Below, one piece after another: positions 2,592-60,196 of a DNA stretch of 64,000 bases. The DNA is from Nitrospirota bacterium. GTDB lineage: Bacteria > Nitrospirota > Nitrospiria > Nitrospirales > Nitrospiraceae. The stretch spans positions 1 to 64,000 of the forward strand of contig JBFLWP010000014.1 of assembly GCA_040757595.1 (NCBI GenBank), read 5' to 3'. A program made the position numbers and the translations under genes. Position 1 is the first letter of the stretch; every line of letters starts with the position of its first letter. The notes beneath the pieces were generated by a model, which saw only the letters and a list, made by a program, of their open reading frames with translations, did not search any database and was not told the DNA's origin.

Positions 2592-4547
2592 CTAGCTTCC
2601 CTGCTCGTCCCCCAGCGCCTCACGGCCGGTCCGGGCAAACGCGGTCTCCGCCTTCCGGCCGGCCGCGAGGGCCGGCGCCACCCGCGCGAGGAGATCCCGG
2701 ACCCGGCCGTAGATGCCCTCCGCGGTCAACCCGTACCTCTCCCGCAGGAGGTCCTGCGGCCCCTGCTCGATGTACCAGTCCGGCAGCCCCATGAGCACCG
2801 TCGGCAGCAGGATGCCCTGCTCGGACAGGGATTCCAGCACCGCCGACCCGAAGCCGCCCATCTTGGCCCCCTCTTCCACCGTCACGAGGCAGCGCACCCG
2901 CTTGGCCACCGAGCCGATCAACTCGGCGTCCAGCGGCTTGACGAAGCGCGCGTTCACGACCGCCGCGGAGACGCCTTCCTGCGCCAGGCGCCGGGCCGCT
3001 TCCACGGCCGGCCAGACCGCGACCCCGACGGCCACGATCGCCACGTCGGTGCCCTCGCGCAGCACCTCGCCCTTGCCGACGGGCAGCGCCTGCGGCTCCG
3101 CATCCATCCGCACGCCCAGGCAGGTGCCCCGCGGATACCGCACCGCGGCCGGGCCTTCGTGGCTGAGGCAGGTCTTGACCATGTGCTGGAGCTCGTTCTC
3201 GTCCTTGGGCGCCATCACGACCATGTTGGGCACGTGACGGAGGTACGCGTAGTCGAACGCCCCGTGATGCGTGGTCCCGTCCTCGGCTACCAGGCCGCCC
3301 CGATCGATGCAGAACGTCACCGGCAGGTTCTGCGTCGCGACGTCGTGGACGACCTGGTCGTAGGCCCGCTGCAGGAACGTCGAGTACATGGCCACGACCG
3401 GCTTCATCCCCTGGGCCGCCAGGCCGGCCGCGAACGTGACCGCGTGTTGCTCCGCGATGCCCACGTCGTACAGCCGGTCCGGGAACTCCTTTTCGAAGGC
3501 GGTCAGGCCGGTCCCTTCGCACATGGCCGCCGTGATCGCCACGATCCGCGGATCCTTTCGCGCCAGCGCCACCAGCGCCTTGACCGCGTGGGCCGTGTAG
3601 CTCGGGCGGGGCGACTTCTTGGCCGGCTCGCCGGTCTCGTGCACGAAGGCCGGGCAGGCGTGGAACCAGACCGGGTTCTTCATCGCCGGCTCGTAGCCCA
3701 GCCCCTTCTTCGTGATCACGTGCACGAGCGTCGGCCCCTTCAGCTTGAAGACGTTCTCCAGCGTGGGGAGCAGGTGCTCGAAGTTGTGCCCGTCGATCGG
3801 CCCCACGTACCGGAAGCCCAGCTCCTCGAACAGGATCCCGGGCAGGATGATGCCCTTGGCCAGCTCCTCCGCCCGACGGGCCAGCTTCTGCATGGGCTGG
3901 CCGATCTGGGGGATCGCGCGGAGGAAATGCCCGGCCTCCTCCTTGATCCTCGTATAGAACTCGCCCGTGAAGGTGCGATTCAGGTAGGCGGAGATCGCGC
4001 CGACGTTCTTGGAGATCGACATCTGGTTGTCGTTCAGGATGACGACGAAGTCCTTCTTGAGACCGCCCGCATGGTGCAGCCCTTCCAGCGTCATCCCGGC
4101 CGTCATCGCGCCGTCCCCTACGACGCAGACCACCTTGTGCGTCTGATCGAGCTGGTCGCGGGCCTCCACCATGCCCAACGCCGCCGAGACGCCGGTGCCC
4201 GCGTGGCCCGCGTTGAACGTGTCGTACACGCTCTCCTCGCGCTTACAGAAGCCGCTGAGGCCGCCGTACTGGCGGAGCGTGTGGAACCGCTCGCGCCGTC
4301 CCGTCAGCAGCTTGTGGGCATAGGCCTGGTTGCTCGTATCCCACACGATCTTGTCGGTCGGGGTGTCGAGCAGATAGTGCAGCGCCACGGTCAGCTCGAC
4401 GACGCCCAGGTTGGAGGCCAGGTGCCCCCCGACGCTCGACACGACCGAGATGATCTGCTCCCGGATCTCCTGACAGAGAGCCGGAAGCTGTTCCGGCGGC
4501 ACCCGCTTCAGATCGGCCGGATTGTGAATCGTTTTCAGGAAAGACAT
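2592..4547 (-). CDS. dxs: 1-deoxy-D-xylulose-5-phosphate synthase
   Basis: First MEP-pathway enzyme: TPP-dependent condensation of pyruvate and glyceraldehyde-3-phosphate to DXP. The product is about 651 aa, with the N-terminal TPP domain (GGHLASNLGVVE, then GDGAMTAGM...NDNQMSIS), the transketolase pyrimidine domain (GIAEQHAVTFAAG) and the C-terminal transketolase domain. An in-frame start exists at 4577, but ATG at 4547 is chosen because AAGGAG sits about 10 nt upstream and MSFLKTI is a usual Dxs beginning. Same strand as ispG, about 100 nt apart, with a palindromic tract between them. Confidence 0.97.
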   Translation of the reverse strand: MSFLKTIHNPADLKRVPPEQLPALCQEIREQIISVVSSVGGHLASNLGVVELTVALHYLLDTPTDKIVWDTSNQAYAHKLLTGRRERFHTLRQYGGLSGFCKREESVYDTFNAGHAGTGVSAALGMVEARDQLDQTHKVVCVVGDGAMTAGMTLEGLHHAGGLKKDFVVILNDNQMSISKNVGAISAYLNRTFTGEFYTRIKEEAGHFLRAIPQIGQPMQKLARRAEELAKGIILPGILFEELGFRYVGPIDGHNFEHLLPTLENVFKLKGPTLVHVITKKGLGYEPAMKNPVWFHACPAFVHETGEPAKKSPRPSYTAHAVKALVALARKDPRIVAITAAMCEGTGLTAFEKEFPDRLYDVGIAEQHAVTFAAGLAAQGMKPVVAMYSTFLQRAYDQVVHDVATQNLPVTFCIDRGGLVAEDGTTHHGAFDYAYLRHVPNMVVMAPKDENELQHMVKTCLSHEGPAAVRYPRGTCLGVRMDAEPQALPVGKGEVLREGTDVAIVAVGVAVWPAVEAARRLAQEGVSAAVVNARFVKPLDAELIGSVAKRVRCLVTVEEGAKMGGFGSAVLESLSEQGILLPTVLMGLPDWYIEQGPQDLLRERYGLTAEGIYGRVRDLLARVAPALAAGRKAETAFARTGREALGDEQGS

Positions 4548-20633: not shown

Positions 20634-20748
20634 GATGGGTGATCGGTGATGAGTGCTAGAGAATGGACGATGAGTCATGCGTAACGAGTTATGAGAGGCG
20701 GGCTTCTTACACCGATCACTCATCACTTGTCACCCATCACCCGTCGCG
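20634..20748. repeat. Intergenic inverted word repeat (GTGATGGGTGATCGG family)
   Basis: Left arm CCCGTGATGGGTGATCGGTG; right arm CACCGATCACTCATCAC...CACCCATCACCCGTC. They can pair over much of their length around an AT-richer centre (20657-20708). Between the DUF47 gene and pit. Same vocabulary as 7779-7873 and 17650-17748. Confidence 0.7.
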
Positions 20749-49296: not shown

Positions 49297-51123
49297 CTAT
49301 TTTAGCGGCGGCGCTTCCCTGCGCTTCGGGGCCGCGTAGTTCACCAAATAGTCGAACAGGCGGATCAGGCGGCTGTCTTGCCGCTTCTGGTCCGTCCAAT
49401 GGCCGATCAGGCCGATCGTGCGGGCTAGGATGAAGAACCCGTTGAGGCTCTCCACCGGGAACCCGATGTCCACGAGCACCGCGGCCATGGTCCCGTCCAC
49501 GTTCAGGATCAGGTTCTCCTTCTTGGCCGAGGTGACCTTCTCGACCTCCAGCGCGAAGTCCAGGTGCGGGGTCTTCATGCTCAGGCTCTTGACGTAGCCG
49601 ACCAGCTCCTTCACGCGCTTGTCCGGATTGCGGACGCTCTTGACCCGGTGGCCGATGCCAGGCACCGGACCGACGTTCTTCTTCATGTAGGCCAGGAACT
49701 CGTCCACGGTCATCCGGTTCTCGACCGCGTACTTGAACCAGCGGCCCGCGTCGGTCACCGCCCCGCCGAAACGCGGGCCGATCATGATGAGGCCCGCGGC
49801 CACCGCCTGGGACATGCCGATGCCGGCGCAGGCGGCGATGATCGTGGTCAGCGCGCCGCTCACGCAGGGCCCGTGGTCGGCCGACAGGATGAGGATCCGC
49901 TTGATGATCTCGGCTTCCTGTTTCGAGACGAGCCGCTTGTCCCAAAGGAGCCCGATGACGTGGGGAATGTCGTAGCCCTTGTTGATGAGGTCGGAGGCGG
50001 CGTAGCCGTCGTAGCAGGGCTCCTCGCCGCGGTCGTCGCTGATCGTGGTCTTGATCAACGGAGCGACCATGACCTCGCCGGTCTTCATGCCCTCCTCGAC
50101 GGTCTTGGGCAGCTTGGGCAGGTCGGCGGGGCTGAGGTCCGGCACCGGCACGACCTGGCCGGTCTTGACCAGCTCCTCGTACGTCGCCTTGATCGCCGGG
50201 CCCAGCGCGCCGAAGGTCTCCGGCACGAGCGCGCCGGCCTTCCGGAGCGCGTCGGACTTGGCGCGGGCCGAGCCCTCGCCCTTCATGCCCTCCTTGGCCC
50301 CGGCGTGGCCGAACTTCATGCCCTTGGGCAGGCTCTCCTGGCAGAAGCCGGAGACGACGGCGAGCAGCTTGATCCGGCGCTTCTTGGCCCCGTACCATTC
50401 GGCCGCCCGCTCCTCCAGGTCGCCGCCCATCTCGCCGACGATGACCACCGCCTTGGTCTGGGGATCCTGCTCGAACTTCTCCAGATAGGACACGTAATCG
50501 GTGCCGGGATAGGCGTCCCCGCCGATCCCGATCGCGGTCGTGATCCCGTCCGCGAACTGGGAGCAGATCCAGATGATCTCGTTGGAGAGGCCGCCCGACT
50601 TGGTGATGACGCCGAACGAGCCCTCGCGGTAGAGCTTGCAGGCCACGAGGTTGTCGAAGGCGCCGCCGATCACGCCCAGCCGGCACTGGCCGGCCGAGAC
50701 GATCCCGATCGAGGAGGGACCGTTGAAGGTCTTGCCGAGCTTGATCGCGTGGCGGGCCAGGAGCTTCGCGTCCTTCTCCGGCACGCCCTCGGTGATCATC
50801 GAGACGAGCTGGACCCGGGGATCGTTGAGCGCCTCCATGCCGGCCGCGCAGGCCCGGTCCGCGCCGATGTAGACGAGGCTCGTGTTGATCTGGGGATGGG
50901 CGGCCGTGGCCTCGGCCACGCCCCTGTAGATTGGGATGGTCAGCAGGCCGCTCCCGTAGGGCACCTCGTTCGTCTTGCCGGCGTCGGGGGGATAGACGAA
51001 AGCGTCCACGTTGAGCGGCCGCTTGATCATGTAGCAGAACTCCGCCATCCGCCGCGCGGCGTTCAGGCCGGCCGCGCCGCCCTGGATCACGACCCGCGTG
51101 TCCTTGTTCGCCAGAATGCTCAT
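49297..51123 (-). CDS. aclA: ATP-citrate lyase, alpha subunit (AclA)
   Basis: 608 aa. N-terminal CoA-ligase part (SILANKDTRVVIQGGAAGLN, SVGIVSAGQC-like SIGIVSAGQCRLGVIGG, phosphohistidine in KFGHAGAKEGMKG about 290) fused to a citrate-synthase-like C-terminal domain (SADHGPCVSGALTTIIAACAG; GPVPGIGHRVKSVRNPD; the conserved His-containing GHWTDQKRQDSRLIRL). Key rTCA enzyme: splits citrate to acetyl-CoA and oxaloacetate with ATP and CoA. Encoded just downstream of aclB. Confidence 0.97.
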   Translation of the reverse strand: MSILANKDTRVVIQGGAAGLNAARRMAEFCYMIKRPLNVDAFVYPPDAGKTNEVPYGSGLLTIPIYRGVAEATAAHPQINTSLVYIGADRACAAGMEALNDPRVQLVSMITEGVPEKDAKLLARHAIKLGKTFNGPSSIGIVSAGQCRLGVIGGAFDNLVACKLYREGSFGVITKSGGLSNEIIWICSQFADGITTAIGIGGDAYPGTDYVSYLEKFEQDPQTKAVVIVGEMGGDLEERAAEWYGAKKRRIKLLAVVSGFCQESLPKGMKFGHAGAKEGMKGEGSARAKSDALRKAGALVPETFGALGPAIKATYEELVKTGQVVPVPDLSPADLPKLPKTVEEGMKTGEVMVAPLIKTTISDDRGEEPCYDGYAASDLINKGYDIPHVIGLLWDKRLVSKQEAEIIKRILILSADHGPCVSGALTTIIAACAGIGMSQAVAAGLIMIGPRFGGAVTDAGRWFKYAVENRMTVDEFLAYMKKNVGPVPGIGHRVKSVRNPDKRVKELVGYVKSLSMKTPHLDFALEVEKVTSAKKENLILNVDGTMAAVLVDIGFPVESLNGFFILARTIGLIGHWTDQKRQDSRLIRLFDYLVNYAAPKRREAPPLK

Positions 51124-51129
51124 CTCCCT

Positions 51130-51215
51130 ACCTCAATGATGAAGGCTGAACGATGAATGATGAGCGGTTGGAAGATGGTTTCCCACGCCCATCATTCAGC
51201 GTTCACCGTTCAGCG
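51130..51215. repeat. Intergenic inverted word repeat (GCTGAACGATGAATGATG family)
   Basis: Between aclB and aclA: left AATGATGAAGGCTGAACG, ATGAATGATGAGCGG; right CATCATTCAGCGTTCACC, GTTCAGCG at the aclB end. GCTGAACG/CGTTCAGC and TGAATGATG/CATCATTCA are exact complements. Words recur at 55360 and 56090. Confidence 0.7.
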
Positions 51216-52412
51216 TTTGTTTTGCAGCGCCATGTCCACGATGTCGGTGAGCGGGGTGTGCCGGTCGAAGACGTGGATGTCGAAGCCCTCCTCGCGGAGC
51301 GCGCGCATCGCGTCCAGCCCCTCCTTCTCGCGCGGGCCGCCGCGTCGCACCCAGATCTTGACGCCGTTCAGCTTCCCTTCCGCCTTGGCCTTGCGGAACC
51401 CGGCGATGATGCCGCCGAAGGTCTTCTTCACGTCGGTGAAGTTGGCGATCGCGCCGCCGACCACGATGTTCTTGATGCCGGGCAGGGAGCAGACCTTCTC
51501 GGTCAGCACCTCGACGGCCCAATCGGGCGGGTCTCCGGAATATTCGGCGTAGTTGGCCAGCTTGCCGCCCCGGGCCACCACCGCGTCGGAATAGTAGACG
51601 CTGGCCCCTCCGCCGGCCGGCAGCATGGCCGTGTCGCCGCCCGGAATCTCGATGAACTTGACCGAGCCCTTGATCTTGGAATCCACGGCCATGACCTCGA
51701 GCTCGTGCTTCGTGTAGGCCCGGCCGAACTCCGCGGCGAACGGGAAGTCCCAATCCGGGTGGCGGAACTTGGCGTCGGCGTCCAGCAGCGTGACCGCGTC
51801 GAGCGCGACCAACTGGCCGTCGTCCTCGCGCGCCACGACCGGGTTCACTTCGAGGTACTGGGCGTCCTCGCTGTCGAAGCAGGCGAAAAGCTTGCCAGCA
51901 AACTCGGCCATCTTCTTGGCCAGCGGCCCGGAAAATCCGGCTTCCTTGGCCAGCTTCTCCAGGGCCTCGTCGGAGGGCTTGGCCCCCACCTCCAGGGACA
52001 GGCGCTTGACCCTGTCCCAGTTGGCCTCCACCTCGATGCCGCCGCAGTTGGCCACGAGGATGTCGGCGCCCTCGCGCGTGGACTTCACCGCCGCGTAATA
52101 CTCCTCCTTGTGAGGGATCATCTCGGAGACGATCACCTGGGAGACCGTGATGCTCCCGACCTGCCGGCCGAGCATCTCCTTGACCGCCGCCTGGGCTCCC
52201 TTGACGTCCAACCCGACCTTCACGAGGCCGAGCTTGAAGCGGGAGCCGAGCGCCTCGTGCGCCTTGGCGACGAGCTTGCTCTTCTGCATCCAGTCGTTGG
52301 CTTTGGCCAGTTGGTCGAACTGCTCGACCGACGTGACGACCACGTAGTTGGGCACCGAGATGCCCCACTTCTTCATCAGGCCCATCCCGGGCCCTTCAAG
52401 CACCTTGGCCAT
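51210..52412 (-). CDS. aclB: ATP-citrate lyase, beta subunit (AclB)
   Basis: 400 aa. ATP-grasp plus CoA-ligase domains (VAKAHEALGSRFKLGLVKVGLDVKGA; ILVANCGGIEVEANWDRV; FIEIPGGDTAMLPAGGGASVYYSDAVVARGGKLANYAEYSGDPP; NIVVGGAIANFTDVKKTFGGIIAG). Binds ATP and citrate in the two-subunit ACL. First gene of the eight-gene rTCA run on this strand; upstream lies a 270-nt region with no gene and a run of pyrimidine-rich sequence. Confidence 0.95.
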   Translation of the reverse strand: MAKVLEGPGMGLMKKWGISVPNYVVVTSVEQFDQLAKANDWMQKSKLVAKAHEALGSRFKLGLVKVGLDVKGAQAAVKEMLGRQVGSITVSQVIVSEMIPHKEEYYAAVKSTREGADILVANCGGIEVEANWDRVKRLSLEVGAKPSDEALEKLAKEAGFSGPLAKKMAEFAGKLFACFDSEDAQYLEVNPVVAREDDGQLVALDAVTLLDADAKFRHPDWDFPFAAEFGRAYTKHELEVMAVDSKIKGSVKFIEIPGGDTAMLPAGGGASVYYSDAVVARGGKLANYAEYSGDPPDWAVEVLTEKVCSLPGIKNIVVGGAIANFTDVKKTFGGIIAGFRKAKAEGKLNGVKIWVRRGGPREKEGLDAMRALREEGFDIHVFDRHTPLTDIVDMALQNKR

Positions 52413-52685
52413 GGGGTTTCCTCTCTTGACAGACCAAACCGGTCCGAACGGGCTATCGCATGGAAGCGCTGGATTCTAGAGAGATTCTGGGCTGCTGACA
52501 ATCACCCAAAGGGCCTATTTTTCCAGGACAATGGCCCTATCCCCTGCGGGTCGCGAAGGCGGTAGCCTGGTACGCGGAGCCGTAAAGGTAAGCGCTAACT
52601 ATAGGGAAAATCAAGGCGGGGTGTCAAGGTGACAGAGGGGCAGGAAACCGTGAAGAGAGCTTCTTCACGAGCCGGTGAAGCCACC

Positions 52686-53519
52686 TTATTTCCGTTGGCA
52701 GGTCGGGCAGTAGAAGGAGCTGCGTTTGCTGGCATCCGCCAGCCGGCGGATGACCGCCCCGCAGCCGGAGGGACAGGGGAGGCCGGCCTTGTCGTAGACC
52801 CGGTGCCGGTCCTGGAACCGGCCTCTCGCTCCGTCAGGGGCGAGAAAATCCCGCACGCTGGAGCCCCCGCGGCCGACGGCCTCGGTCAGCACCTCCCGCA
52901 TGGCCTCGTAGAGCCGTTTGATCGTCGGCTCGCGCAGACGCGACGCGAGACGATGGGGGTGCAGCCCGGCCCGGTGGAGGATCTCGCTCGCATAGATGTT
53001 GCCGATGCCGGCGATGGCCTGCTGGTGCATGAGCAGCGCCTTCAGCCTCCCCCGGCGGGCCCTCACCAGATCCCGGAAATCCTCCCAGGTGACGGACAGG
53101 GGGTCGCAGCCGAACCGCCTGGCCGTGAACCGCTCGAGACCGGCCCGGTCAAGCAGGTACACCCGGCCGAAGCGCCGGGGGTTCCAGTAGTGCAACTCCG
53201 GCTCCTTGCCCCCGTCCAGCGACAGGATCAGGTGCGTGTGCTTGCGGTAGCGGGGGTCCGGCGGCTTGAACAGCAGGAGCCCGGTCATCCCCAACTCCGC
53301 CACCAGGTAGCGGGTTTCGGCTCCCCGTGAAGCGGCCAGCACCACGCTCTTCCCGCGCCGCTCCACCGCGGAGAGGACCGCCCCCCGATACCAGTCCAAT
53401 GTCGCCAGCCCCTGCCGTACGATGTCCGACCGTCCGACCCAGCAGCCCCTGATCGTCGTTCCCAGCAGACGTTCCCCGAGCTGGTTCGCCACCACTTCCG
53501 CTTCAGGCAACTCCGGCAT
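52686..53519 (-). CDS. mutM: Formamidopyrimidine-DNA glycosylase
   Basis: 277 aa. N-terminal catalytic PELPE (Pro2, Glu3), RRGKSVVLA Lys-containing loop, H2TH region (HQQAIAGIGNIYASEILHRAGLHPHR) and a C-terminal zinc finger CPSGC...CPTCQ. Removes oxidised purines such as 8-oxoG in base excision repair and cuts the abasic strand. Directly downstream (3 nt) of the uracil-DNA glycosylase gene, a small repair unit. Confidence 0.96.
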   Translation of the reverse strand: MPELPEAEVVANQLGERLLGTTIRGCWVGRSDIVRQGLATLDWYRGAVLSAVERRGKSVVLAASRGAETRYLVAELGMTGLLLFKPPDPRYRKHTHLILSLDGGKEPELHYWNPRRFGRVYLLDRAGLERFTARRFGCDPLSVTWEDFRDLVRARRGRLKALLMHQQAIAGIGNIYASEILHRAGLHPHRLASRLREPTIKRLYEAMREVLTEAVGRGGSSVRDFLAPDGARGRFQDRHRVYDKAGLPCPSGCGAVIRRLADASKRSSFYCPTCQRK

Positions 53520-53522
53520 CTT

Positions 53523-54233
53523 TCACCGTGACGGGCGACGCATGACGGGTGATCGGCGATCGAGTTGCATGATCAAGCGGCAAAACGTCTGCGTGAGGCT
53601 CTCTTCAAACGCGCTCAGGGAAGGATAGTGCCTCAGGATCGTCCGACGGTTCCGAGGGGACGGGTGGGGAAACGAAAGGACCTTGGGGGCCGACCCCGGC
53701 GCCATCCGCCCGATCGCACCGGCCACCCCCTCGGCCGCGAGCTTGCCGAAGGTCACGACCACCGAGGGGTTGAGGACCGTCATCTCGCGCAGGAGAAAGC
53801 CCGCGCAGGCCCTGACCTCGGCCTGTCTCGGCGAGCGGTTGGCACGCGGATTCCCCGGCCGGGCCGGATGACACTTGACCACGTCCGTCATGTAAAAGAG
53901 GTCCTCGAGGTCCCGGCAGCGGGCATGGCCGACCAGGCGGAGCGCCCGTCGAACGAACAACCCGGCCGGTCCGGTGAACCGGCGACGGTTCTTCCAGCTC
54001 ACGTAGCCCGGCGCCTCCCCCACCAGCAGATAACCGGTGGCCGACGTGCCGTAGGCCCGGCGGCCGAAGCGGCGCCAAGGGCGCATCGTGGGACAGAGGG
54101 CGCAGCAGGCGACGTCGCTCTGCAGAAGGAGCAGACCGGAGGGGACGGCTGGGCGTCGGTCCGGGTAGGGGGTGCGGCTAGATCCGAGAGGGGGCCGCTC
54201 CCGGCATTGACGGCTGGCCTTGTCCCTGCCCAT
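53523..54233 (-). CDS. Uracil-DNA glycosylase, Fe-S (family 4/5-like)
   Basis: About 236 aa from ATG 54233 (an in-frame start at 54338 would lie deeper in the phosphatase gene; no closer ATG/GTG/TTG exists). Cluster cysteines CALCP near the start plus VKCHPA and RACAGF; motif GEAPGYVSWKNRRRFTGPAGLFV and the C-terminal FPHPSPRNR. Excises uracil from DNA, a need in G+C-rich genomes with deaminated cytosine. The 5' end overlaps the upstream phosphatase by 56 nt; the 3' end contains GTGACGGGTGATCGG-type repeat words, so its last residues are atypical. Confidence 0.85.
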   Translation of the reverse strand: MGRDKASRQCRERPPLGSSRTPYPDRRPAVPSGLLLLQSDVACCALCPTMRPWRRFGRRAYGTSATGYLLVGEAPGYVSWKNRRRFTGPAGLFVRRALRLVGHARCRDLEDLFYMTDVVKCHPARPGNPRANRSPRQAEVRACAGFLLREMTVLNPSVVVTFGKLAAEGVAGAIGRMAPGSAPKVLSFPHPSPRNRRTILRHYPSLSAFEESLTQTFCRLIMQLDRRSPVMRRPSR

Positions 54234-54642
54234 CGCGTCCCTGCCTGAGCTGCCGCACCCGCTCGATGGTTCGTTCGAGATGGGGGATGGGGGTGGCGCC
54301 GGGGCGCCGCGCCCTGAGCAGACTCTCGGCCTCGGCATACTTCATCCCTTTGACGAGCACCAGGTAGGCGATCGCCATCGAAACCGAGCGGCCCATGCCG
54401 GCCCGGCAGCAGACCATGATGCGCGCATTGGGCGGCTGCTGCTCGAGCCAGTCCACGGCTTCCTTGACGTCCGCCGGGCTCGCTTCGCTGTATTCTTTGA
54501 ACGGGATATGGTGATAGGCCACGCCCCTCGGCGGCTTGATGTTGTGCTCTCCGGAGAGGAACAGCACGCTGTTGACGAAGGGCGGCGGCTTCTGGGCGTC
54601 GTCAACGTTGCCCACCAGGAGCTTTTCGTTCACGAAGTGCAT
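54178..54642 (-). CDS. Dual-specificity protein phosphatase-like
   Basis: 154 aa cysteine phosphatase: P-loop CRAGMGRSVS (CX5R, about residue 79-88), general acid region in the preceding HIPFKEYSEA loop, and MAIAYLVLVKGMKYAEAESLLRARRP typical of DSPs. Would remove phosphate from Ser/Thr/Tyr proteins or small molecules; target unknown. Its 3' end overlaps the glycosylase start. Confidence 0.85.
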   Translation of the reverse strand: MHFVNEKLLVGNVDDAQKPPPFVNSVLFLSGEHNIKPPRGVAYHHIPFKEYSEASPADVKEAVDWLEQQPPNARIMVCCRAGMGRSVSMAIAYLVLVKGMKYAEAESLLRARRPGATPIPHLERTIERVRQLRQGRDGQGQGQPSMPGAAPSRI

Positions 54643-54688
54643 GGGGCAGAGCTTATATCAAAAACCGGCGGGCTGGGTCAAAGCATGA

Positions 54689-54718
54689 TTGCGGACCGCC
54701 GGAAAGGCCCGGTATACT
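54689..54718 (+). promoter_or_regulatory. Sigma70-type promoter of the zinc-ribbon gene
   Basis: TTGCGG (54689-54694), 18-nt spacer, TATACT (54713-54718), leader of about 33 nt. Confidence 0.6.
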
Positions 54719-54757
54719 GCGTTGCCGTCATTCTATCGCGTCAGGGAGCCGTTGACC

Positions 54758-55120
54758 ATGGCCACCACCCTCAGCGTCGAGCAGGTCGAGGCCCGGCTCG
54801 GCACGGTCCGGTGCGCCGTCTGCAAGAAGAGCCGGTTCACGATCGACCGCCGGACCATGCAGCCGGACGGCGAGTGGAAGGGCGCGTGCCTCTCCTGCCG
54901 CTATACCTTCCCCGTCCACACGGACATGGAGTTCTACCTCCGCACCCAGCCGGACGTGCCGTACCGGCTCAAGGAGATCACCTGCCCGGCCTGCGAGCAC
55001 CGGGGGGTAGAATTGGATTTCCGCATCGTCATGTCGGTCCGCGAGGCGATTTACTTCGTCACCTGCAAGGCCTGCAAGCATCAGTTTCCCGAGCAATCCT
55101 CTCTCGAAGTCTTCGAATAA
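54758..55120 (+). CDS. Small protein with four CxxC pairs (zinc ribbons)
   Basis: 120 aa from ATG 54758; the longer frame overlaps the promoter. Four CxxC pairs: CAVC, CLSC, CPAC and CKAC, arranged as two zinc-ribbon sites, first near residues 20-50, second near 77-107. No enzyme motif and no family I can name. Promoter with TATACT lies just upstream, so it begins its own transcript. Confidence 0.75.
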   Translation: MATTLSVEQVEARLGTVRCAVCKKSRFTIDRRTMQPDGEWKGACLSCRYTFPVHTDMEFYLRTQPDVPYRLKEITCPACEHRGVELDFRIVMSVREAIYFVTCKACKHQFPEQSSLEVFE

Positions 55121-55153
55121 CCGGCTTGTCTACTGCCTTCCGGGGATTTCGTG

Positions 55154-55159
55154 TATACT
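55154..55159 (+). promoter_or_regulatory. -10 element for a possibly leaderless transcript
   Basis: TATACT at 55154-55159 lies exactly 7 nt before the ATG at 55166, so transcription would start on the start codon. No good -35 at 17 nt (TTGTCT at 55126 is 22 nt away). Confidence 0.4.
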
Positions 55160-55165
55160 GAACCC

Positions 55166-55348
55166 ATGACTTCCCCGAAGCCCCCAACCTCACCGGCCCC
55201 TCAACCCGAGGGCTCCAAACCCCGCAAGGAGATTCCGCTCGTCTCGGTCCCCAACGACCGGGACATGATCGCCGACGAGATGGCCGAGCTCTTCGACGAG
55301 GACAAGGTCACCCACGAGCACGGCTCCTCCGAACCCGAAGCGGATTAA
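55166..55348 (+). CDS. Small acidic hypothetical protein
   Basis: 60 aa (from ATG 55166; GTG 55151 would overlap the -10 box). Pro-rich N-terminus (PPTSPAPQPEGSKPRK), then VPNDRDMIADEMAELFDEDKVTHEH, an acidic amphipathic helix. Not recognised. Supported mainly by the consistent frame, the promoter and the absence of any other gene here. Confidence 0.5.
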   Translation: MTSPKPPTSPAPQPEGSKPRKEIPLVSVPNDRDMIADEMAELFDEDKVTHEHGSSEPEAD

Positions 55349-55359
55349 TCACAACCAAT

Positions 55360-55434
55360 GCTGAGCGATGAGTGCTGAATGATGAATGGCGGAGGTGCGT
55401 CTGCGGCCTCACCGACCAGCCTTGTTGAGCAACC
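55360..55434 (+). repeat. Direct repeat 1 flanking the toxin-antitoxin pair
   Basis: Begins GCTGAGCGATGAGTGCTGAA, continues TGATGAATGGCGGA, GCGTCTGCGGCC and ends near AACC. The copy at 56090-56165 has the same order with a few substitutions and 2-nt indels. Confidence 0.8.
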
Positions 55435-55466
55435 TGTAGAAGCCCCAGCTATGTCGTCACCGTGGA

Positions 55467-55727
55467 TCAGGGATTGTCGAGAATGGCGTGCGGACCGATC
55501 ACGCGGAGGCGAAGGCCGCCCTCGATTTTCTCGAAGGTGAACCGATGGGCCATGTCGATGCTGGCCTCCCAAATGCCCTCGGTTCCCTTGATGCGTTTGA
55601 CGCGCAGCGACGGATGCGTCAGGTTGGAGGAGACAAGCAGTTCCAACTTCTGCTGAAACTGCCGTTGAACGTCCGGCGGGAGCTTCTTGTAGGCTCTGTC
55701 GAAGCGCGGCGAGCGGACAATGATCAT
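55467..55727 (-). CDS. RelE/ParE-superfamily toxin
   Basis: 86 aa. MIIVRSPRFDRAYKKLPPDVQRQFQQKLELL followed by HPSLRVKRIKGTEGIWEASIDMAHRFTFEKIEG matches the RelE/YafQ fold (helix pair, then strands with basic RxxRI and late Arg/Phe). Likely a ribosome-dependent mRNA endonuclease or gyrase poison; which one is not decidable. Its ATG overlaps the antitoxin stop by 4 nt. Codon use is close to neighbours. Confidence 0.85.
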   Translation of the reverse strand: MIIVRSPRFDRAYKKLPPDVQRQFQQKLELLVSSNLTHPSLRVKRIKGTEGIWEASIDMAHRFTFEKIEGGLRLRVIGPHAILDNP

Positions 55728-56002
55728 GCCTTGTCCAGCTCAGCCAGAAACTCCTTCACGCCCTTCGAGACCTTGACCCGACCTTTGCGAAAATCCTGCT
55801 CGACCTTGCGCTCTTCTTCCTGCCAGCGCTTCGACCAGAACCACAGTTGACTTCGATCCACCGTCGCCAGCGGTTTGATCAGAATCCCGTCCTCACGCAC
55901 CTCAAAATCCACCAGATCGCCGACTTTGATCTGCGCCTGCTTCCGCACCGCCGCCGGCAGAGTAATCTGATAGTTACGCTGAACCTTGGCCGCCGCTCCC
56001 AT
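55724..56002 (-). CDS. AbrB/SpoVT-type antitoxin
   Basis: 92 aa. N-terminal swapped-hairpin DNA-binding domain KVQRNYQITLPAAVRKQAQIKVGDLVDFEVREDGILIKP, then a charged C-terminal helix (EEERKVEQDFRKGRVKVSKGVKEFLAELDKA) that would bind the toxin. Encoded before the toxin as in typical type II operons. The pairing of an AbrB-type antitoxin with a RelE-type toxin is less common than with MazF or VapC toxins. Confidence 0.85.
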   Translation of the reverse strand: MGAAAKVQRNYQITLPAAVRKQAQIKVGDLVDFEVREDGILIKPLATVDRSQLWFWSKRWQEEERKVEQDFRKGRVKVSKGVKEFLAELDKA

Positions 56003-56089
56003 CGGAACCTCCGAATAACAGAATTTCAGAAAGACAGAAAAATACTACTCCCTCGCCGTTTGTCCGTCAAGGGCGACCCGTCCGTGAAC

Positions 56090-56165
56090 GCTGAATGATG
56101 AGTGCTGAGTGATGAATGGCGGATAGGTACGTCTGCGGCCTTGCCAGCCGGCCTTGACGACCAAC
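56090..56165 (+). repeat. Direct repeat 2 flanking the toxin-antitoxin pair
   Basis: GCTGAATGATGAGTGCTGAG, TGATGAATGGCGGA, ACGTCTGCGGCC, ending ACGACCAACC. Same orientation as 55360-55434; together they bracket about 650 nt containing only the toxin and antitoxin genes. Confidence 0.8.
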
Positions 56166-56185
56166 CGGGGAATATTTAGGCAGTC

Positions 56186-56575
56186 TTAGTCTTTGCGCCA
56201 CAAAAGCGGCATCAGGGCGAATAGGCCGAGCATGAGGAGGTAGACCGCTCCTGCCACTGGGTCTCGGTAGGCCAGGTATTCCGAGATCATGAGACCACGA
56301 AGCCAGAGCACGACCGTGAGCTCGCAGGCCAGAAGGAAGATTAGCGCAACACCGCCGACCGCCAGAAGTCTGAGTGGGGTGGACGGCTTGACGAACCGGC
56401 GGGAGACCCACCGCGCCGCGAAGATAATCACGACGAGCATGACAGGGGCCTCGATCAGCTCGGCTGCCCGTTCGCTCACGCGCGGCACCAGCCACAGCAC
56501 GCGAATCGGCCCGAGCACGAAGCCGGCCCCGAACACGAGGATAAAATAGACCGCTCCGGCCTTCAAAACCTGCAT
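56186..56575 (-). CDS. Four-helix membrane protein, unknown
   Basis: 129 aa from ATG 56575; the longer frame runs into the upstream repeat element. Four TM helices at about 7-25, 40-57, 70-95 and 105-125. A basic loop RWVSRRFVKPSTP separates helices 2 and 3. No named family recognised. Upstream lies copy B of the dispersed repeat; downstream the direct repeat of the toxin-antitoxin cassette. Confidence 0.7.
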   Translation of the reverse strand: MQVLKAGAVYFILVFGAGFVLGPIRVLWLVPRVSERAAELIEAPVMLVVIIFAARWVSRRFVKPSTPLRLLAVGGVALIFLLACELTVVLWLRGLMISEYLAYRDPVAGAVYLLMLGLFALMPLLWRKD

Positions 56576-56587
56576 GATCAAATCCCG

Positions 56588-56815
56588 GCTCGAAACAGAC
56601 AGAGCCGCGGCTGACGAACGGCGGCCAGGTTCGGCGCCGGACACGATGCGTTGACCTCATGCCGGCTCCCCTCGGTCTTACCGTTGGCCGGTCGCCTCAT
56701 CGGATTAGAAGAACGGCGACCCGGCACCCTCTCCGCCTCCCAACACGCTCATTCCCGCCGTGCCGGACGCCTCACTGCCCATCCGTTCCATCCGCGGCGA
56801 AAGAGGGAAGGTGTT
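56588..56815 (-). repeat. Dispersed ~200-bp repeat, copy B
   Basis: Minus-strand copy. In order: GGATGGAACGGATGGGC, AGGGTGCCGGGTCGCCGTTC, TTCTAATCCGATGAGGCGAC (56710-56691), CGGCCAACGGTA, CAACGCATCGTG, and the end block CGTTCGTCAGCCGCGGCT just before the membrane-protein gene. Confidence 0.75.
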
Positions 56816-56860
56816 GCGACGCAGGACCAGTCAGCCCGCCGCACAGAGCCGCAACTCAAA

Positions 56861-56901
56861 AAAGTGAAAAGGCGACGAGTCGCTCGCAGACCCGTCGCCT
56901 T
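56861..56901 (-). terminator. Intrinsic terminator of the DUF6933 gene
   Basis: On the minus strand AAGGCGACG (56901-56893) pairs with CGTCGCCTT (56877-56869), followed by TTCACTTTTTT. 66 nt downstream of the DUF6933 stop. The rest of 56576-56966 holds copy B and no gene. Confidence 0.75.
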
Positions 56902-56966
56902 CCTGAAGCGACGGTCAAGTTCTCTCAGCAGGAGTTAATGATAAGGATTCCCGCCCCTATTTTCTC

Positions 56967-57473
56967 TCACATGCCTAATTGCAACCGTCCACTTTGAAAC
57001 AATGCAGCGGTGAGGCGGTCCGCCGACTGGTAGCCAATCGGTCGTGATGGCATCTGCGCCAACTCCAAACAGATCGCCACTGTGTTATCGGCACGAGGCC
57101 TCGTCGAGAAATAGCCCTTGGCTTGAAAGGCGAAGTCGTTCATCGCACCCAGGACCCGCCGACTGCGGGGCTTCGAGAATGCCACCTCGCTAGAAGCGGC
57201 GACTTCTCGGGTAACCAGGTCCTCTCGAATACCAAGACCCTGAAGAATGGCCGCCAAAGCTGGCGCGAACGCGGAGGGGAAAGGCGCGTTTCGCGCTGGG
57301 ATGATGACCGGAAGGAGCGATCGCTCACTCTGGCAGAGCACCAGGCGCGTGGGGCCGATGTTCAGCAGGCTCACGTACCAATCGCCAAGGATTCCAGACA
57401 ACGCCGGCACATCGTCCTGCGGCTGGATCCGAAATCGGCGAACGACCCGTCCGGTGCACCTGAAGATCACCAT
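56967..57473 (-). CDS. DUF6933-like protein
   Basis: 168 aa. Starts MVIFRCTGRVVRRFRI; conserved blocks GDWYVSLLNIGPTRLVLCQSERSLLPVIIPAR and FSKPRSRRVLGAMNDFAFQAKGYF fit DUF6933, small proteins of unknown function often found with toxin-antitoxin-like genes. 35 nt downstream of a broken addiction-module gene, on the same strand. The enzymatic role is unknown; context suggests it may once have been part of a two-gene module. Confidence 0.7.
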   Translation of the reverse strand: MVIFRCTGRVVRRFRIQPQDDVPALSGILGDWYVSLLNIGPTRLVLCQSERSLLPVIIPARNAPFPSAFAPALAAILQGLGIREDLVTREVAASSEVAFSKPRSRRVLGAMNDFAFQAKGYFSTRPRADNTVAICLELAQMPSRPIGYQSADRLTAALFQSGRLQLGM

Positions 57474-57507
57474 GCGAAAGCTGGTCGATCACGCCTATTG
57501 GGGGGAA

Positions 57508-57752
57508 TCAGAACGACTGATCTCGTAGCTTACGTTCGATCTCCGCGCGCACATCTTCCCAGGGCTGACCTGGGGCAGGGTTGGCCTTGTAGGTTTTCAG
57601 CCGTTCTTGGAGAATGCGCAAATGCCAGTCGGGAACCGGTACTTTTTGGGGAGAGGCGGCGATCCGTTCCCAGAGAGACTGAACGTAATCGATCTACTCG
57701 TCACCGAGAGATCGTTGAACCCTGGAGGCGGGTTGGGAATGATCTTGGACAT
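57508..57752 (-). pseudogene. Broken addiction-module antitoxin (TIGR02574-like)
   Basis: ATG 57752 reads MSKIIPNPPPGFNDLSV, then the frame is lost. The continuation in another frame reads DE-stop-IDYVQSLWERIAAS, PQKVPVPDWHLRILQERLK, TYKANPAPGQPWEDVRAEI, ERKLRDQSF and stop (57508). Both halves fit the small antitoxin family (PDWHLRILQERLK...W..V). One base is missing near 57702 and the expected Lys codon is TAG, so there are two lesions: real decay rather than one sequencing slip. A TTGTTT-N16-TATACT promoter survives. Confidence 0.8.
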
Positions 57753-57771
57753 GCAGAGAACCCCTTGGGGC

Positions 57772-57799
57772 AGTATAGCGCAAGCCCAGGGGCAAACAA
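57772..57799 (-). promoter_or_regulatory. Promoter of the broken antitoxin/DUF6933 unit
   Basis: Minus strand TTGTTT (57799-57794), 16-nt spacer, TATACT (57777-57772), 20 nt before the ATG at 57752. The plus strand 57753-58008 holds no gene. Confidence 0.6.
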
Positions 57800-58008
57800 A
57801 GCAGCCTCGCTCACTCTCTTCAAGACCGTCGTGCCATTCGTTATTGCCCTCTTAGTGCGCAAGAAAAAACTCCCGACACCTTTTCCACTTCACTCAAGTA
57901 CTCCGCGCAGCGTCCATTTTCTTGTAGACTGTACCCCGGCTATGCGAAACGCGCTACATGAACGTCTGTCGAAACAAGGACCTCCATCCCCCTCTTCTCG
58001 GCCTCTGC

Positions 58009-58621
58009 CTACAACGTACGTATTCTCGCGCACGGTCGATGAGTAAGGGATAATGGAGAGCTTCGGCGTATAGAGTCACGAAAGGTTACAGAGTTATAAA
58101 AGTCTTCGAGCGGGATGTACACGCCAACAGATTTCGCCCACTCCCTGAGGCGCCCGTTGCACGCGATGTCCCAAGAAATGACCTCGATACCCCAGCCATG
58201 GTTCGCCAGACGCTCAAGGTCAGCGTGAAAGCCAGCGCCAGTTTCGTATCCTGCACCATCGCCAGTCATGAGTACTGCTATCCCGGGCGAGAGAGCATCA
58301 ACGAGCGCGCGAAGCATGTGAACGTAAACATTGGTCAACACCTTGCTCTTTCCCTGAACCAGCACCGCGCTCATAAAGCTCAACCGTCACTCCGGTCTCC
58401 CGTAATCGCTTCCAAACTCGCTCGAGTTCAGGGGGTACTGACCCGACACACACTCCTTGAACCACGTCCCGCCCCGCCCTTGCGAGGTCGAACATGTTGT
58501 CAAATTGAATCCGAATTTCGCGCTCCGCGACAAAGCCCTCCTTCCTGCGTGCGACGTATTGGGCCGGAATGAAGATGTTGGAGTTGTCCCAGAAGATGTA
58601 GACCTTGTCTCTCTCTGGCAT
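58009..58621 (-). pseudogene. Frameshifted NYN-domain (DUF88/PIN-like) protein
   Basis: ATG 58621 after GGAGGGGGT gives MPERDKVYIFWDNSNIFIPA, and continues to VTVELYERGAGSGKEQGVDQ. Around 58330-58345 the frame shifts; the other frame gives VHMLRALVDALSPGIAVLMT, GDGAGYETGAGFHADLERL and GWGIEVISWDIACNGRLR, ending at 58009. Together the parts make a full NYN RNase-like domain: N-terminal DNS motif and later GDGAGYE acidic site. One frameshift only, so a sequencing or assembly error cannot be excluded. Confidence 0.75.
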
Positions 58622-58744
58622 ACCCCCTCCATTTCGGCATGCCAACGCGCGTCTTCAGCGGCGACTACACAACGGCAAATCCTATAGGCTTTTGCACCTC
58701 ATGGCAAGGGGAGCGGCCCATGAGCGGCCGGTCCCCGTCACTCA

Positions 58745-58945
58745 ATTCTCTTTGCCTCGGCTGGAAGGGATGGGCATGGAGGCTATCGCCATGGCGGGAA
58801 CGAGATGTTGGAGAGCAGAGCGGGTGCCGGGCGCCGTTCTTTTATTCCGATGAGGCGGCCGGCCAACAGTACGGTATGGGACAGCCGTGGAGGCTCAACG
58901 CATCATGGCGGAGCCGGAACTGCCCGCCCTTCGTCAGCCGAGGCT
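58745..58945 (+). repeat. Dispersed ~200-bp repeat, copy C
   Basis: Lies in the gene-free stretch 58622-58966. In order: CGGCTGGAAGGGATGGGC, GCGGGTGCCGGGCGCCGTTC, TTTTATTCCGATGAGGCGGC (58839-58858), CGGCCAACAGTA, CAACGCATCATGG and CGCCCTTCGTCAGCCGAGGCT. Matches copies A and B block by block. Confidence 0.75.
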
Positions 58946-58966
58946 GTCTTTCTTGTAGAGAAGGAG

Positions 58967-60196
58967 TCAGATGGATCGGATTACCTCGATGTTTGCCGAT
59001 GCTGGAATGCGTCCGACGGTTGCCTCACGGTCCTTGCGCTGCGCCCGCACGATCTGGTCAATTCGCACGATCGCGCCCCGGTGCCAGTCGTCGAACGCTT
59101 CGTTCGTCGCGGACCGCTCGCGGTCCAGCCGCCCGACCTCGGGCCTCCCTGTTTCATTGCACAGCCAGGCCCGCTTCTCGCCTTTCATGACCCGCAGCTC
59201 GCTGACCGCCCGATACACATCGGGAGCCCGTCGCACGAGGCTCTTCCCGTCCTTGCGCAGAATCAGATAGGCGAACTTCAGCGCATCCTTGATGAAGCCC
59301 ACCTCCCGATCCAGCGCCGCCACGACAGGGGGCGGCGTCCAGGGCCGCTCCTCGTGGCACCAATCCTCTTCCTTGACGAGCGCCGGACAGGGCCGCTCGT
59401 GCAGACAGGGGCTGTAGACGGTGCAGGCTCCGTCCGCCACCAGCCGATCCCGAAACCGGTGCAGCTCCCGCGCCGTCTCCCGCAGGGCCGGCTCCACGAT
59501 CAGCAGGGTGCCGTGCCGATCGAGCCGCCCCAGTAGATCGCGGACCAGCTCGACCCGCCGCTCAACCGGCTCGCGGGCCTTGCGGAAGAGCTCGTTCAGC
59601 GCGTGGCTGACGACGATCAGGTCGTAGGGCCGGTCCTCCCGCTTGGCCATCCGGTCCAGCCGGGCGGTCCGCTCCAGATCGGCCTGCAGGGTCAGGAGAC
59701 TGGCGCTCTGCACCGGGGCGATCCGCTCATAGGCCCGCCACAGGTCCGCACAGTCTCGGAGGGCGCGTTGGGACCGGTCCATGGCGATCGCCTGGAGCGG
59801 GCGATTGCCCAGTCCGAGACGATCGGTGAACCAGTCCAGCAGGGCCAGCGAGGCCGAGCCGGGCCCGCTCCCCAGATCCAGGACCAGGAACGGCTGCGAG
59901 GAGCCCGCTCCCTGCGGAGGCGGCATCTCCTCCAGCAACAGCCGGACCTTGGCCAGGTTCACCGGCACATAGTAGGACAGGTAGGCGAGGCGGAGCCGGT
60001 CGTCGTCCAGGTAGGAGGCGGCAAGGGAATCCCGTTCGCGCGTGAAGAGGCGGGACAGCCGCAGGACGCCCCGGACGACCTCCTGATCGGCCCTCCCTGC
60101 CTCGTCCGGCCCCCGTCGCCCGGAAACCTCGGACAGGGCGCGGAGGACCGCCTCCGACAGCCGGAAGCTCCGGGGCCCGCCGGTCCGGTTGACCAT
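58967..60196 (-). CDS. Rsm22/METTL17-like ribosome-associated methyltransferase-fold protein
   Basis: 409 aa. Rossmann methyltransferase core FLVLDLGSGPGSASLALLDWF (about 105-125), AMDRSQRAL and YDLIVVSHALNEL. A cysteine group CTVYSPCLHERPCPALVKEEDWC (about 245-270) matches the [4Fe-4S]-binding cysteines of mitochondrial METTL17/Rsm22, which act in small-subunit assembly. The bacterial protein's exact role is unproven. Divergent from a small gene 48 nt away. Confidence 0.82.
   Translation of the reverse strand: MVNRTGGPRSFRLSEAVLRALSEVSGRRGPDEAGRADQEVVRGVLRLSRLFTRERDSLAASYLDDDRLRLAYLSYYVPVNLAKVRLLLEEMPPPQGAGSSQPFLVLDLGSGPGSASLALLDWFTDRLGLGNRPLQAIAMDRSQRALRDCADLWRAYERIAPVQSASLLTLQADLERTARLDRMAKREDRPYDLIVVSHALNELFRKAREPVERRVELVRDLLGRLDRHGTLLIVEPALRETARELHRFRDRLVADGACTVYSPCLHERPCPALVKEEDWCHEERPWTPPPVVAALDREVGFIKDALKFAYLILRKDGKSLVRRAPDVYRAVSELRVMKGEKRAWLCNETGRPEVGRLDRERSATNEAFDDWHRGAIVRIDQIVRAQRKDREATVGRIPASANIEVIRSI

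What the first reader, a model, noticed from the sequence alone, without database searches (positions are those of the whole stretch)
55360..56165. Toxin-antitoxin pair bracketed by ~75-bp direct repeats
The AbrB-type antitoxin and RelE-type toxin genes (55467-56002) are the only content between two long direct repeats of the same orientation. Recombination between them would excise the pair as a circle and leave one repeat. The repeats also contain the TGAATGATGA word family seen at 51130-51215, so cassette ends and intergenic repeats share vocabulary.
Basis: partly seen in the sequence, partly recalled or inferred. Interest (0 to 1): 0.6.

Follow-up and report, generated by a model that had tools for sequence, protein, structure and literature searches.

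The report
Toxin-antitoxin pair in accessory-gene hotspot
An acquired toxin-antitoxin gene pair sits between two decayed copies of the same intergenic repeat, at a chromosomal spot where related bacteria carry different toxin-antitoxin pairs or nothing, so the repeats look like scars of gene gain rather than the ends of a movable cassette.

Summary
An AbrB-type antitoxin and a RelE-fold toxin (55467-56002, minus strand) lie between two same-strand repeats of about 80 bp (55357-55434 and 56087-56166; 81% identical, far above shuffles). The repeat is a chimera. Its first half is the 5' arm of a dispersed hairpin built of 7-nt words, found in 140 of 172 family genomes. Its second half is the right end of another dispersed repeat. 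Among 175 family genomes the chimera was seen only here (two copies) and in genome G174 (one copy, same site).

The site, between a small conserved gene (sm65) and a convergent Rsm22-like methyltransferase gene, is an accessory-gene hotspot. It is empty (6-18 bp between the genes) in 17 of 45 relatives. Others hold unrelated TA pairs (HigBA, PemK, BrnTA, DUF4258) and other accessory genes. In G009 a HigBA pair is likewise bracketed, by a 219-bp, 89% repeat that includes the end of sm65.

No integron integrase or attC-like pair was found, and the copies share at most 13 identical bases in a row, so excision today is unlikely. The same hairpins also bracket atpB-atpE, so bracketing alone does not show mobility. 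Best reading: repeat-mediated gene gain at a hotspot, now decayed.

The parts
55151..55348 (+). sm65: small conserved gene, left anchor of the hotspot
   Evidence: Found next to the zinc-ribbon gene in all 52 relatives whose site was fetched
55357..55434 (+). Left copy (L) of the chimeric repeat (heptad 5' arm plus right end of dispersed repeat E1)
   Evidence: single-copy counterpart at the same site in G174
55467..55727 (-). RelE-superfamily toxin, 86 aa
   Evidence: Profile match to RelE structures; predicted fold, pLDDT 78, matches RelE/YafQ/YoeB
55724..56002 (-). AbrB/MazE-type antitoxin, 92 aa, overlapping the toxin start
   Evidence: Pfam MazE_antitoxin 1.5e-13; pair conserved in G422 (65/71%) and G194 (59/63%)
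56042..56070 (-). Promoter-like site of the pair (TTGACG-17-TAGTAT), between the right repeat and the antitoxin
   Evidence: Consensus scan only
56087..56166 (+). Right copy (R) of the chimeric repeat
56186..56644 (-). p152: ORF of the next accessory gene; its stop is 20 bp from the right repeat
   Evidence: Absent at this site in the 12 nearest relatives checked; 53-60% relatives in a Syntrophaceae MAG, two Nitrospira MAGs and an uncultured proteobacterium
56603..56805 (+). Dispersed repeat E2, one arm of an inverted pair with 58748-58945
   Evidence: 77% inverted match; about 85% match to the 282-bp direct repeats in G172
58748..58945 (-). Second E2 copy, inverted
58967..60196 (-). Rsm22-like methyltransferase gene, right anchor of the hotspot
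   Evidence: Pfam Rsm22 3.3e-16; directly convergent with sm65 in 17 relatives
51135..51217 (+). Complete heptad hairpin, parent type of the repeats' first half
   Evidence: 72.7 bits; folding z -5.1

Best explanation
This is a horizontally acquired type II toxin-antitoxin module (AbrB/MazE-type antitoxin, RelE-fold toxin, with a promoter-like site of its own) in an accessory-gene hotspot between sm65 and a convergent Rsm22-like methyltransferase gene. The bracketing repeats are two copies of one chimeric intergenic repeat. A single chimeric repeat probably lay downstream of sm65 before this genus split from that of G174 (inferred from G174). The second copy was most likely made when the module was gained: incoming DNA carrying repeat plus module recombined with the resident repeat by ordinary homologous recombination, leaving a copy on each side (inferred). 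G009 shows the same outcome with a HigBA pair. The copies have since diverged to 81% and probably no longer support excision. Shown: repeats, chimeric build, hotspot, empty and alternatively filled sites, TA identity by family and fold. Inferred: order of events, the recombination route, and toxin activity.
For: The antitoxin occurs in 1 of 175 family genomes; nearest relatives, with the toxin alongside, lie in other families of the phylum (G422, G194). GC is 58.8% against 65.7% for the window, with lower GC3 than the core neighbours. 17 of 45 relatives with both anchors have 6-18 bp between them. Filled sites carry HigBA, PemK, BrnTA, DUF4258, Unstab_antitox, SLATT, D12 methyltransferase and IS genes. 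The chimera was found only in G000 (two copies) and G174 (one copy, same site). G009 carries a 219-bp, 89% direct repeat (last 137 bp of sm65 plus 80 bp with heptads) around HigBA. G172 carries a 282-bp, 90% repeat around a segment with an Unstab_antitox gene.
Against: No second genome of this genus is held, so the timing of the duplication is not seen. L and R are about as diverged as the sm65-region DNA is between genera (79%), so they may be older than the TA gain. In G422 and G194 no direct repeats were found around the pair, so an incoming repeat-plus-module unit is not observed. Several filled sites with TA genes have no direct repeats.
Confidence: 0.55

Rival explanations
1. The repeat was tandemly duplicated first, by local duplication, and the TA module later inserted between the two copies by an unrelated route.
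For: L and R are well diverged (81%), compatible with a duplication older than the insertion. Dispersed repeats accumulate at this site in many genomes.
Against: The module fills the space between the copies with only short margins. In G009 the repeat includes the end of sm65 and again brackets exactly one TA pair, which points to a link between gain and duplication.
Confidence: 0.2
2. Chance arrangement: dispersed intergenic repeats settle at the 3' ends of genes, so any gene may end up between two of them.
For: Heptad hairpins are dispersed through the genome (92 strand matches); two same-strand hairpins bracket atpE-atpB; both L and R lie 20-33 bp beyond the stop codons of minus-strand genes.
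Against: L and R share the same chimeric junction, not found elsewhere in this genome, so R is more likely a copy of L (or the reverse) than an independent insertion of the hairpin.
Confidence: 0.15
3. Active excisable cassette: the repeats are recombination sites and the TA pair leaves as a circle, with one repeat left behind.
For: Same-orientation bracketing; a single-repeat site without this pair in G174; module plus downstream repeat resembles cassette anatomy.
Against: Longest identical run 13 nt; no recombinase gene recognised at the site; no integron integrase over cut-off in the genome; no attC-like core pair; the half elements fold no better than shuffles.
Confidence: 0.08

Closest known systems
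Horizontal-transfer hotspots lacking mobile elements (Oliveira et al. 2017, PMC5635113)
   Same: A short interval between conserved neighbours is filled with different accessory genes or empty in related genomes; no recombinase recognised at this site in this genome; homologous recombination is the proposed route.
   Different: That model uses homology in flanking core genes (double crossover). Here duplicated repeats, and in G009 a duplicated flank, suggest additive integration at intergenic repeats. It was defined within clades of closely related strains; this comparison is across genera of one family.
Integron gene cassettes carrying TA pairs (reviewed in PMC8618304)
   Same: TA modules each followed by a repeat in constant orientation.
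   Different: No IntI over cut-off, no attC-like core pair, repeat present in only two copies.
REP and MITE-type dispersed intergenic repeats
   Same: The repeat's two halves come from two dispersed intergenic repeat families with palindromic ends or arms.
   Different: Heptad-built arms with a 7-nt pattern; no heptads within 1.5 kb of either Y1 transposase match; no Rfam match.
AbrB/MazE-type antitoxin with RelE-superfamily toxin, type II TA
   Same: Antitoxin family, toxin fold and overlapping gene order.
   Different: Toxin matches no Pfam or NCBIfam family at the thresholds used; activity untested.

Membership tests
Type II toxin-antitoxin module | Adjacent antitoxin and toxin genes, co-oriented and overlapping | tested here: met
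   Antitoxin 55724-56002 and toxin 55467-55727, both minus, overlapping by 4 bp; pair kept together in G422 and G194
Type II toxin-antitoxin module | Antitoxin with a DNA-binding domain of a known family | tested here: met
   MazE_antitoxin PF04014, 50.9 bits over cut-off 24.7; AbrB TIGR01439 over cut-off
Type II toxin-antitoxin module | RelE-fold toxin | tested here: met
   Foldseek to RelB-RelE and DinJ-YafQ, E about 1e-4, TM 0.71-0.78; profile match to RelE 7e-4
Type II toxin-antitoxin module | Toxin stops growth and antitoxin neutralises it | not testable with these tools
   Needs expression in a laboratory strain
Integron gene cassette | Integron integrase in the genome | tested here: not met
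   No match over the TIGR02249 cut-off; only weaker tyrosine-recombinase matches, which ring in all 14 control genomes too
Integron gene cassette | attC site with GTTRRRY and RYYYAAC core sites | tested here: not met
   R has neither core; L has one GTTGAGC without a partner
Accessory-gene hotspot | Same interval empty or filled with unrelated accessory genes in related genomes | tested here: met
   17 of 45 relatives empty; many different modules in the others
Excisable direct-repeat element | Long identical direct repeats or a recombinase acting on them | tested here: not met
   81% identity, longest identical run 13 nt; no recombinase recognised among the window's genes in the interval
RAYT-linked REP element (for the hairpin) | Y1 transposase gene flanked by the element | tested here: not met
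   Y1_Tnp matches on C6 and C22 have no heptad runs within about 1.5 kb

The most novel reading that the evidence does not exclude
Intergenic half-hairpin repeats downstream of sm65 act as recurrent ports through which TA modules are added and swapped without an integrase, giving short tandem TA arrays of repeat-plus-module units, as in this window and in G009.
Probability: 0.2. Interest if true: 0.6.

Novelty: new member of a known kind. Interest (0 to 1): 0.35.

Why it matters
It shows how a small TA module can be gained at a fixed chromosomal address without a recognisable mobile element, leaving duplicated repeats as the trace. The locus has both empty sites and many alternative fillings in one bacterial family, so it could serve to test whether intergenic repeats drive module turnover. 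It also cautions that same-strand repeats around a TA pair do not by themselves mean an excisable cassette: the same repeat family brackets ATP synthase genes.

Tried and rejected
Integron or CALIN: integrase family below cut-off and no attC-like cores. RAYT-mobilised REP: no heptads beside the two Y1 transposase matches. Known RNA family: no Rfam match for 51000-59000. Terminators: no intrinsic terminator called at 55300-56300, and L and R fold no better than shuffles. TA pair inherited within the family: antitoxin in no other family genome searched. Repeats as an intrinsic part of the TA unit: no direct repeats around the nearest relatives in G422 and G194. Plasmid origin: only weak AbrB matches, 31-38%. 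Literature searches found no paper on this locus or repeat.

Full report
Observation. The window holds two same-strand repeats, L (55357-55434) and R (56087-56166). They align over 80 columns with 65 identities and one 2-nt gap. Their alignment score is 84, against at most 24 in 200 shuffles. Between them lie only two genes, both on the minus strand and overlapping by 4 bp: an AbrB/MazE-type antitoxin (MazE_antitoxin 1.5e-13) and an 86-aa toxin. The toxin has no Pfam or NCBIfam hit of its own. A profile of its relatives matches RelE structures at E 7e-4, and a single-sequence model (pLDDT 78) matches RelB-RelE, DinJ-YafQ and YoeB structures. A promoter-like site lies just upstream of the antitoxin.

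What the repeats are. The first half is the 5' arm of a hairpin whose arms are made of 7-nt words (TGARYGM). Complete hairpins of this kind are dispersed in the genome, one of them at 51135-51217 in the window. The three tested fold much better than shuffles (z about -4 to -5), whereas L and R do not. A covariance model finds the hairpin in 140 of 172 family genomes and 21 of 22 genera, with stem pairs changing together on both sides. The alignment was fitted to the model and both strands of palindromic sites count, so that covariation is supportive only. L and R score 25.8 and 18.9 bits against 60-90 for strong full elements, so they are half elements. The second half matches the right end of another dispersed repeat, E1, with three longer copies elsewhere in this genome. 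Among 175 family genomes the fusion of the two halves was found only in this genome, twice, and in G174, once, directly after sm65 at the same site apart from an inserted IS. In G174 the site is split over two contigs that overlap by 127 identical bases, so the join is inferred.

What the site is. Across the family, sm65 and a convergent Rsm22-like methyltransferase gene are neighbours. In 17 of 45 relatives with both anchors they are 6-18 bp apart. In others the gap holds up to 7.3 kb of unrelated material: HigBA, PemK-like, BrnTA, DUF4258, Unstab_antitox, RES, SLATT and D12 methyltransferase genes, immunity proteins and IS elements. Some ORFs scanned there are likely spurious, so these are families seen, not a census. 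The antitoxin is absent from the other 174 family genomes searched. Its nearest relatives lie in other families of the phylum, with the toxin beside it in the two closest. The TA genes have lower GC and GC3 than core neighbours.

Direct repeats elsewhere at the site. Self-comparison of the filled sites found direct repeats in seven of them: this window, G009, G172, G171, G134, G151, and a short palindromic one in G166. In G009 the repeat is 219 bp at 89% identity, comprises the last 137 bp of sm65 plus the adjoining heptad stretch, and brackets a HigBA pair. In G172 a 282-bp repeat brackets a segment with an Unstab_antitox gene. Many filled sites with TA genes have no such repeats.

Mechanism. 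The favoured account is additive homologous recombination at a resident repeat during gain of the module, leaving a copy on each side. It explains the shared chimeric junction and the G009 parallel. It is inferred: no donor carrying repeat plus module was found, and L and R are diverged enough that the duplication could predate the TA gain. Present-day excision is unlikely, because the longest shared identical run is 13 nt (that such short identity recombines poorly is general knowledge, not tested), and no integron integrase or attC-like pair was found. As a control, two same-strand hairpins 1.3 kb apart bracket atpE and atpB, so bracketing by this repeat family does not by itself signal mobility.

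Comparison. The locus fits the published picture of transfer hotspots without recognisable mobile elements, where homologous recombination is proposed (PMC5635113). It is not a member of the integron cassette class by the features tested.

Noticed in passing
51135-51217, and many places in G000 and relatives: Dispersed intergenic hairpin built of 7-nt words TGARYGM, with 92 strand matches in this genome and matches in 140 of 172 family genomes; no Rfam match in the stretch searched.
   Followed up: partly
G000 C17:26216, C12:47669, C10:9898: Dispersed repeat E1 with ends CAGGATGTTGAAAAAG and CTTTTTGAACATCCTG; its right end occurs in many family genomes.
   Followed up: partly
56603-56805 and 58748-58945: Inverted pair of dispersed repeat E2 (203 bp, 77%) bracketing 56.8-58.7 kb.
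   Followed up: no
58009-58645, minus: A NYN-domain gene appears split over two overlapping frames (58298-58645 and 58009-58383), possibly frameshifted.
   Followed up: no
L075 (G009) 2850-4519: Two different TA pairs in tandem after sm65, each preceded by a copy of the sm65 end plus a heptad stretch.
   Followed up: partly
sm65-methyltransferase gap in family genomes: The TA genes identified here whose strand I checked run toward sm65, in the direction of the methyltransferase gene (read coordinates; not tested statistically).
   Followed up: no
20645-20748: A weaker heptad-like palindrome (24.5 bits).
   Followed up: no
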